Shown here one piece after another: positions 54,801-57,800 of a stretch of 64,000 bases of DNA (positions are counted from its first letter, which is position 1; each line of letters begins with the position of its first letter). The notes under the pieces are model-generated. The model saw only the letters and a program-made list of their open reading frames with translations, had not been told where the DNA came from and made no database searches. Origin of the DNA: Lithospermum erythrorhizon. Its lineage: Eukaryota > Streptophyta > Magnoliopsida > Boraginales > Boraginaceae. The stretch spans positions 372,001 through 436,000 of the forward strand of contig JADFUC010001000.1 in the NCBI GenBank assembly GCA_019722365.1. The letters are read 5' to 3'. Both the position numbers and the translations under genes were made by a program.

Positions 54801-57800
54801 TAACAAAACTAACATTTTAATGCTTAGCTTTCCAAGTGAATTTAAAGAATGATTATTAGTTTTCGCGTAGAACAAAAACTGTCATTAAAAACTAGTAGTG
54901 CTCATAGGAGAATATTTGGAGAAGTGTTTGAGGAAGAAAAAATGTCTTCATTCAATCATACCTTGGCATTAATATTTCACGCAGCTTTAATCTGGCCATA
55001 AATTCTGCATTCCCACCAAGTATTATATCAGTTCCACGGCCTGCCATGTTTGTCGCAATTGTGACTGCACCAAATCGACCACTCTGTGCTACAATTTCTG
55101 CTTCTCTTTCCACGTTTTCTGGTTTAGCATTTAAAACCTTCATATAAAGTGAATAACCCGCATATAATATTAGAGGAACCTTGAATGAAGGATCAGTATC
55201 TAATAAAGGACTACGGTATTATATTCTAGTTCACCTCATGGGGAATTCCAGCTTCACGAAGTTGTCCTGACAGAGTATCACTTTGCTCAACGCTAGTTGT
55301 GCCGACAAGCACGGGGCGACCTGTTTTGTGCATCCTGGAAATTTCAACAACAGCGGCACGCCATTTCCCTGTAGTAGCTTTAAATACTACATCTGATTCA
55401 TCCTGAAACACCAAATAATCAAAGATGAAAACATATATTTAAGGACTCCAATGTACGAGAAATAGAAAGGAAAAAGTGAAAGATTTATTTACACACTGAT
55501 TCATTATTCCACGTCTCCTGGACTCAGCACAACATTCTAGGACATGATTGCTAAGTCTCCTGAATACACTAACACTAGCCACTAATATGCAACACCTCAG
55601 GTACAGAGTTATGAGTTTCTAAGCTTTTATATTTATCAGTGTATCAAAACCGTAGTATTTGCCTCACGAGCCCAAAATGTGAGGAAGCACAACAGTAACC
55701 CCTACCGTAGAGAGACTGGCAAAAGGAATGTTTATCGGAAACTCTAGATAGAAAGAACTCGCCTGGAGAAAGAAGTTCTGGTAGCTAATTGAAGCAAGAG
55801 TTATGGTCTCATTTTGAATTGGCAGACCTTCTTTGGCTTCAACAGCCTGGTGAAGTCCGTCACTCCAGCGTCTTCCCTGCAAAATACTCACTAGTCACCA
55901 CCTTTAAATTCAAATGAAGAACCTATATACTTTGAGTTGGAAAAAAAGCTTTTCCAACCCTTGAGGCCTTGCCGCCTTGACAAAGAGCAAATGCATGTAT
56001 CTTAAAAAAGACAGCGAGACAGATGTATGAAGCCTAGTTCACCCAGCACAGAAACATCTGATAAGAGTCACTCTACATCACCTGCATCACTCGACCGGTG
56101 AATTCATCAACGATGAGAACCTCCTTGCCACGAACAATATAGTTCACATCTCTAAGGAAGAGTTCCTTTGCTTTAATAGCATTCAAAAGAAAAGATGCCC
56201 ACTGCTCTCGGGGATCATAAAGATCTTTTACATCCAGGATTTCTTCAGCATCTGCATAACCCTGTTCTGTAAGCAAGACAGTCTTTTGTTTCTCATCCAC
56301 CTGCAGTAAGGATGATAAGAGAATAGTAAGACTACTACCTATCAGAAAATGGAAATAAGAATCAGAAATTTATAAGTATAATGCTTAACTCTCTTCACCT
56401 AAACTATAGCAAAGATTGACATATTTCATACTTAATTAATTGGGAAAGAGCAATTGACATGGTTTTAAGCTACCAGTTAAGGGCCATCACTGGTCATGGT
56501 TAGGATGGTATTTTCAAGAGCTAATTTTTTTACCGTGTAATGAATCTCACGCTCAAATGCAACAGCTATCTTCGCAGCTTTGTAGTATCGTTCACTAGGT
56601 TTTTCAGCAGGCCCTGATATTATAAGAGGGGTCCTTGCTTCATCGATTAAGATAGAATCAACCTCATCAATAACGCAGAAATTAAAATCACGCATGACGA
56701 GCTCATCCACGCTCTGTAGATTACAATAGCTAGTCATTTTGCAAAAACAAAGTTACATATATAGAATAGTCAACTAACATGGATATAAATTTAAAAAGTC
56801 AAAGGGGATAAAGCAACAACAACAAAAAAGATTTACTTTCCGTGGCTAGGTTGTCTCTCAAGTAGTCAAAACCAAGCTCACTGTTGGTTACATAGGTGAT
56901 GTCGGACAAGTAGTTCTCCCTCCTCTGCTCACTTGTCATATTCTCTGTTAGTATAAACTTGCATTAAGTATGAAATCATGAATGCCAAAACCAAGATGTT
57001 TTTTTCATCTTTTTGTGTGTGTGTGTGGTGGGGGTGATTAAAGGGCTGATCTTGGCTACAATATTAACAAACATGGTAACAGTACAATATGATGCTGGAA
57101 AATAAAAAATAAAAGTTGGAGTACAAAGTAATTAAGCAAACAGGGCATCAGAATGAGGAGAATATAGGATCGGTTTATGGAATAACTTAAAGATAAGACC
57201 AAACTAGCATGTAAGCAACCACCAATTATCTTAACAATTCAGACCAGATTAGTGTGGCAGATGCTTCTCCCAATTATTTTACCAGCTTCAAAACGTATCG
57301 AAGAAAGAAACAGATATTCTGTGTTATAGTATCTTTAAGGATCCATAACATCGGACATTGTAGTTTTCTTTTGATAATTTTGCAAAGATGTACTCTGAGG
57401 TGGACGAGACTAGCAATCAATAATCGTCACCCCTTACCCAATCTCCTTATCAAATAATAACAAACCAAAAGAACAAATAAACAAATTGAAACTAAATAGT
57501 CTCTCTGTATGTGACATATCCATGACAGAATAATTTTATACCCAATTCACAACAATAAGGGCCATATCTGGATGCATAATAACTTTAGGGACAACATTTC
57601 AAGGGAAATGCAACACTATGTTAGTGTCTAAAAAGCATCAGATGAAACAAGTGCACACGTGAGGACCAATATAAAAATGTGGAATGACAGAAAGAATCAT
57701 ACGCTGTATAAGGCCGACCTTCAATCCAAGAAATCGGGGAACTTGACCAACCCATTCACAATCTCGACGGGCCAAATAATCATTTACTGTAACAACATGA

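What the first reader, a model, noticed from the sequence alone, without database searches (positions are those of the whole stretch)
55404..55762. SecA1 gene appears to lack the exon for the GMTGTA segment
Exon 7 ends at YQNFFLQ and exon 8 opens at DESDVVF. In SecA proteins about 38 residues lie between these, running from FPKLCGMTGTA to PTNKPMIRK, in one of the most conserved parts of the ATPase. I read all 359 bases of the intervening intron on the minus strand and found no GMTGTA-like coding. The exon would be a multiple of three, so skipping it keeps the frame. The simplest reading is a deletion from one intron into the next. The other exons are open and conserved, which makes the loss recent or the assembly suspect.
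Basis: partly seen in the sequence, partly recalled or inferred. Interest (0 to 1): 0.75.

Follow-up and report, generated by a model that had tools for sequence, protein, structure and literature searches.

The report
SecA1 exon missing from draft genome
In this draft genome of the dye plant red gromwell, the one SecA1 gene found (a chloroplast protein-transport motor) lacks a 38-codon exon, and the likeliest cause is an error in the genome assembly rather than a real loss.

Summary
SecA1 on the minus strand (59768–51873) passes from exon 7 (…YQNFFLQ) to exon 8 (DESDVVF…) across 360 bases that encode nothing like the 38 residues FPKLCGMTGTA…IRK. All 118 full-length relatives aligned have them. 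The segment was not found elsewhere in the window or in the assembly, although one of those searches found SecA1 exon matches as short as 25 residues.

The locus is Leryth_005252 of Lithospermum erythrorhizon, from a DBG2OLC nanopore/Illumina draft of about 367 Mb. A later paper estimates about 709 Mb. The rest of the protein shows full constraint: 556 of 557 near-invariant columns match. Published SecA1 mutants die as seedlings. A second defect, a GA donor on intron 4, is also non-coding. RNA-seq polishing would clean exons that are present, but not introns or an absent exon.

I judge an assembly deletion most likely (0.72), ahead of a young broken paralogue (0.13), a deletion allele (0.12) and a functional variant (0.03). 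No reads or transcripts could be examined, so artefact versus real deletion is inferred, not shown.

The parts
51873..59768 (-). SecA1 gene, 19 exons present, conceptual protein 1060 aa without the missing exon
   Evidence: Exon joining gives one open frame from ATG to TAA; best database hit P0001 Leryth_005252 at 95% identity; Pfam SecA_DEAD, SecA_PP_bind, P-loop_SecA, SecA_SW
55763..55876 (-). Exon 7, ends ...SISYQNFFLQ in phase 0; followed by a GC donor (CAG|GCGAGT)
55403..55762 (-). 360-nt sequence read as intron 7; the 114-nt exon for FPKLCGMTGTA...IRK expected here is absent
   Evidence: Six frames, segment profile, tblastn; single copy in the assembly
55235..55402 (-). Exon 8, opens DESDVVFK in phase 0
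56841..56944 (-). Exon 4, ends ...DNLAT in phase 0
   Evidence: exon 5 starts at S(VDEL) in phase 0, as the Jatropha model P0002 (FLGLK|SVEELV) also suggests
56714..56840 (-). Intron 4 (127 nt) with non-canonical GA donor (ACG|GAAAGT); second defect of the gene as assembled
   Evidence: 16 of 18 introns start GT, one GC, one GA; all 18 end AG; no GT in phase 0 before the next in-frame stop after exon 4

Best explanation
Assembly artefact. The living plant most likely has a complete SecA1 gene. When the nanopore/Illumina hybrid contig was built, a stretch running from the intron after exon 7 to the intron before exon 8, including the 114-nt exon, was dropped from the consensus. Later polishing with RNA-seq reads could clean exons that were present, but could not put back an absent exon and would not clean introns; that would explain why coding exons look perfect while the two defects are an absent exon and a wrong intron donor. 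Shown: the exon was not found in the assembly, no other SecA1 copy was found there, the coding sequence is fully constrained, and the assembly method and its weaknesses are published. Inferred: that the plant's reads contain the exon, and the link to the polishing step.
For: 556 of 557 near-invariant columns match and there is no stop or frameshift in 19 exons. No other SecA1 copy found; barley and Arabidopsis SecA1 mutants do not survive the seedling stage (PMC11865152, passages). Assembly: about 20-fold nanopore reads joined by DBG2OLC with ABySS contigs from Illumina reads of a different plant source, then Pilon with Illumina and with RNA-seq reads; 46% of the assembly without Illumina gDNA support; 79.3% complete BUSCOs in the gene set (PMC7261806, sections). 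An independent assembly is 693 Mb with 88.68% BUSCOs (PMC8435551, section). An unpolished DBG2OLC nanopore assembly of Drosophila reached 47.7% BUSCO (PMC6169397, passages). A second, non-coding defect lies in the same gene.
Against: No reads or transcripts were available, and no Boraginaceae SecA1 other than P0001 was seen among the listed hits of three searches. The same paper reports 89.6% of coding regions with at least 10 Illumina reads and 95.97% of Illumina reads aligned, so most coding sequence was supported. Loss of 114 nt or more is larger than a usual nanopore consensus error (recalled). The database model, made with RNA-seq evidence, also lacks the exon, as it must if the contig does. 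A homopolymer test for unpolished sequence gave no signal (5 A/T runs of 10 or more against 4.75 expected; no control genome).
Confidence: 0.72

Rival explanations
1. Young pseudogene. This copy really lost the exon and its intron 4 donor, and an intact second SecA1 copy lies in the part of the genome that the assembly lacks.
For: The assembly is about half of the 708.74 Mb estimated later. A genome duplication in the Boraginaceae ancestry is reported (PMC7261806 and PMC13253341, passages). Two splice-level defects lie in one gene. A 127-bp SecA1 fragment on contig C1813 shows that pieces of the gene have been copied.
Against: Only 1 of 557 near-invariant columns departs and no stop or frameshift is seen, so any loss would have to be very recent; no second copy was found in the assembly.
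Confidence: 0.13
2. Deletion allele. The sequenced plant was heterozygous, or the two plant sources differed, and the assembly kept the allele that lacks the exon.
For: A recessive lethal allele can persist in heterozygotes, as barley xan-m stocks do. Nanopore and Illumina reads came from different plant sources; heterozygosity of the Illumina source was estimated at 0.39%.
Against: The read-depth histograms had a single peak, taken by the authors as a largely homozygous genome; no second version of the region was found in the assembly.
Confidence: 0.12
3. Functional variant. The exon is truly absent and the plant lives with a SecA1 without this segment, or supplies it in trans from another locus.
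For: Joining exon 7 to exon 8 keeps the frame, and a pineapple model shows the same junction.
Against: GMTGTA is in 119 of the 120 listed SecA1 hits, all but P0001, and in the three bacterial SecA chains whose alignments were printed. No source of the exon was found elsewhere in the assembly. The pineapple model lacks other conserved blocks too.
Confidence: 0.03

Closest known systems
Plant SecA1, motor of the chloroplast Sec1 translocase (e.g. Nicotiana attenuata P0012)
   Same: Same Pfam domains in the same order; about 84-86% identity to most listed plant SecA1 proteins; 556 of 557 near-invariant columns kept
   Different: Lacks 38 residues: SecA_DEAD matched only to profile position 270 of 290 and P-loop_SecA from position 5 instead of 1; intron 4 donor is GA
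Pineapple SECA1 database model P0266
   Same: Lacks exactly the same 38 residues, FFLQ joined to DESD
   Different: Also lacks other conserved blocks, so it looks like a faulty gene model, on a 34,175-base contig; the cause was not tested
SecA2 paralogue of the same assembly (contig C362, about 900.0-906.0 kb)
   Same: SecA family; carries its own SGMTGTAKTE in an open exon
   Different: A divergent paralogue on another contig (39-85% identity to P0012 in the pieces matched at E below 0.01); not a source of the missing SecA1 exon

Membership tests
Plant SecA1 | SecA_DEAD, SecA_PP_bind, P-loop_SecA and SecA_SW domains in order | tested here: met
   All four above cut-off
Plant SecA1 | GMTGTA segment (motif III; the name is recalled) between PP_bind and P-loop domains | tested here: not met
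   Absent as assembled; present in 118 of 118 aligned relatives
Plant SecA1 | Chloroplast transit peptide | not tested
   An N-terminal extension is present; no targeting predictor was available
Pseudogene | Relaxed constraint: substitutions, stops or frameshifts in coding sequence | tested here: not met
   1 of 557 near-invariant columns departs; no stop or frameshift
Pseudogene | Structural lesions that prevent a normal product | tested here: met
   Missing exon and GA donor, as assembled
Assembly artefact | Raw reads contradict the assembled sequence | not testable with these tools
   No reads available

The most novel reading that the evidence does not exclude
A green plant really carries, at its only SecA1 locus, a gene without the exon for the GMTGTA segment, and stays alive by an unusual route: a SecA motor that works without this segment, or an exon supplied in trans.
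Probability: 0.02. Interest if true: 0.9.

Novelty: not a real feature. Interest (0 to 1): 0.1.

Why it matters
If the loss were real, it would contradict the apparent need for a segment conserved from bacteria to plants. As an artefact it matters modestly: a public protein record (Leryth_005252) hides two local defects behind peptide stretches that relatives do not have (FHGN at the exon 4-5 junction, ASSFYLEFPINIPFASLST from the intron after exon 7), and anyone counting gene or motif losses in this draft could be misled.

Tried and rejected
Exon hidden in the intron on either strand: rejected by six-frame reading, profile and tblastn. Exon moved elsewhere in the assembly: not found. In one search (E up to 10) the four matches were exon 8, two places in SecA2 and one weak place on C221 (E 0.835). 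In one search three places matched the degenerate pattern with one mismatch, fewer than the six of the reversed-pattern control, so at chance level; one is SecA2, and the other two (C1283, C1586) score 3.4 and 6.2 bits with the segment profile against 18.8 for SecA2. A second SecA1 copy in the assembly: only a 127-bp fragment on C1813. Direct evidence from a Boraginaceae transcript: three protein searches listed no named Lithospermum protein other than P0001 and no other hit near its 95% identity (the 120 best rows of about 8,000 scored each, so fragments could be hidden). Homopolymer test for unpolished sequence: no signal, no control genome. Exon count: barley SecA1 has 19 exons (passage); here 19 are present and one is missing; the difference of one was not resolved. 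P0001 (own model) and P0002 (odd Jatropha model, which does contain the segment) were left out of the 118-row alignment. Structure prediction and fold search were not run. Papers: PMC7261806 and PMC8435551, named sections and passages; PMC11865152, PMC6169397 and PMC13253341, passages; others only in search listings.

Full report
What the sequence shows. The minus strand carries a SecA1 gene from the ATG at 59768 to the TAA at 51875-51873, in 19 exons with one open frame of 1060 residues. Exon 7 (55763-55876) ends ...SISYQNFFLQ and exon 8 (55235-55402) opens DESDVVFK, both in phase 0. The 360 nt between them have a GC donor and an AG acceptor. In 118 full-length relatives (rows P0003-P0120 of the 120 listed) the protein continues for 38 residues between these points; this is the only block that over 90% of them have and the window protein lacks. 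31 of the 38 columns are at least 98% identical. Aligned to bacterial SecA, the block corresponds to positions 376-413 of chain 2fsf_A. That GMTGTA is helicase motif III is recalled, not from a call.

Is the exon anywhere? The best frame of the 360 nt scores 1.0 bit with a profile of the segment; the best match of the segment in the whole window has E 0.39. In the assembly (366,103,689 bases, 2,391 contigs) a protein query spanning the segment matched exon 8 (E 3.5e-20), SecA2 on C362 (E 0.01 and 0.2) and one weak place on C221 (E 0.8). A degenerate CGMTGTA pattern with one mismatch matched SecA2 and two other places, no more than its reversed control. A full-length SecA1 query (P0012) matched 26 places, among them SecA1 exon matches as short as 25 and 28 residues, but nothing over P0012 residues 440-472. 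The tool scores only its best candidates, so absence is strong but not absolute. The region 55235-55876 has one match, itself.

A second defect. Exon 5 begins at S(VDEL) in phase 0, so exon 4 should end at ...DNLAT in phase 0, where the next bases are GAAAGTAAAT. No GT in that phase precedes the next stop. Of 18 introns 16 start GT, one GC, one GA; all 18 end AG. GAAAGT is one T away from common donors, by a substitution or a lost base; that is an inference.

What record this is. The best hit, P0001 (Leryth_005252, Lithospermum erythrorhizon), lies on a contig of 1,863,822 bases, the length of contig C329 that holds the window. The base and contig totals differ slightly from the published 367,405,101 bases in 2,465 contigs. 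P0001 is this gene with two patches: a 9-nt piece after a shortened exon 4 (RENYFHGNVDEL), and exon 7 extended by 57 nt into the intron (ASSFYLEFPINIPFASLST); both were retraced from the window DNA. Both avoid the non-GT donors.

Why an artefact is most likely. First, constraint: of 557 columns at least 98% conserved in relatives and present in the window protein, 556 match, without stop or frameshift. Second, need: barley xan-m and Arabidopsis SecA1 mutants do not survive the seedling stage (PMC11865152, passages). Third, the assembly: Auber et al. (PMC7261806, sections) joined ABySS contigs from Illumina reads of another plant source with about 20-fold nanopore reads in DBG2OLC, then polished five times with Illumina and five times with RNA-seq reads. 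They report 46% of the assembly without Illumina support and 79.3% complete BUSCOs. Tang (PMC8435551, section) estimates 708.74 Mb and assembled 693.34 Mb with 88.68% BUSCOs. An unpolished DBG2OLC nanopore assembly of Drosophila reached 47.7% BUSCO (PMC6169397, passages). RNA-seq polishing would clean exons that are present, leave introns alone and be unable to add an absent exon; this link is inferred.

What speaks against it. No read or transcript was available. Auber et al. also report 89.6% of coding regions with at least 10 Illumina reads. A loss of at least 114 nt is large for a consensus error (recalled). The assembly is about half of the later size estimate and an older genome duplication is reported, so an intact second copy remains possible (0.13). 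A deletion allele also fits (0.12), though the read depth had a single peak.

The exon as a unit. The pineapple protein P0266 has exactly the same junction, FFLQ then DESD. Among 359 retrieved proteins 173 contain S[IV]SYQNFFLQ; 171 continue into the segment, P0001 and P0266 do not. P0266 lacks other conserved blocks, so it is better read as a poor model than as natural skipping, but it fits a block bounded by introns.

Verdict. Correctly observed; most likely a draft-genome gap of one exon. Low interest unless reads prove the deletion.

Noticed in passing
window 59139-59768 (-), exon 1: The N-terminal region holds about four diverged, in-frame copies of a KASLGG...GGSD block (self-matches of 78-85%); most of these residues are insertions relative to over 90% of the 118 relatives, and P0012 has one such block. 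The divergence between copies suggests a real tandem expansion.
   Followed up: partly
window 56714-56840 (-), intron 4: Non-canonical GA donor (ACG|GAAAGT); the database model avoids it with a 9-nt piece and a changed acceptor.
   Followed up: yes
L017 (C1813), locus 4857-4982; copy of window 52106-52232: A 127-bp, 93.7% identical copy of the end of exon 18 and the start of intron 18 lies on another contig; no other SecA1 piece was found in the 9.9 kb fetched around it.
   Followed up: partly
protein P0266 (Ananas comosus): A pineapple SECA1 model lacks exactly the same 38 residues, and other blocks as well.
   Followed up: partly
window 35329-36099 (-) and 15899-16393 (+): ORFs with Pfam matches above cut-off to ASY3-like (PF20435) and PTPlike_phytase (PF14566); the other four of six ORFs scanned had none.
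   Followed up: no
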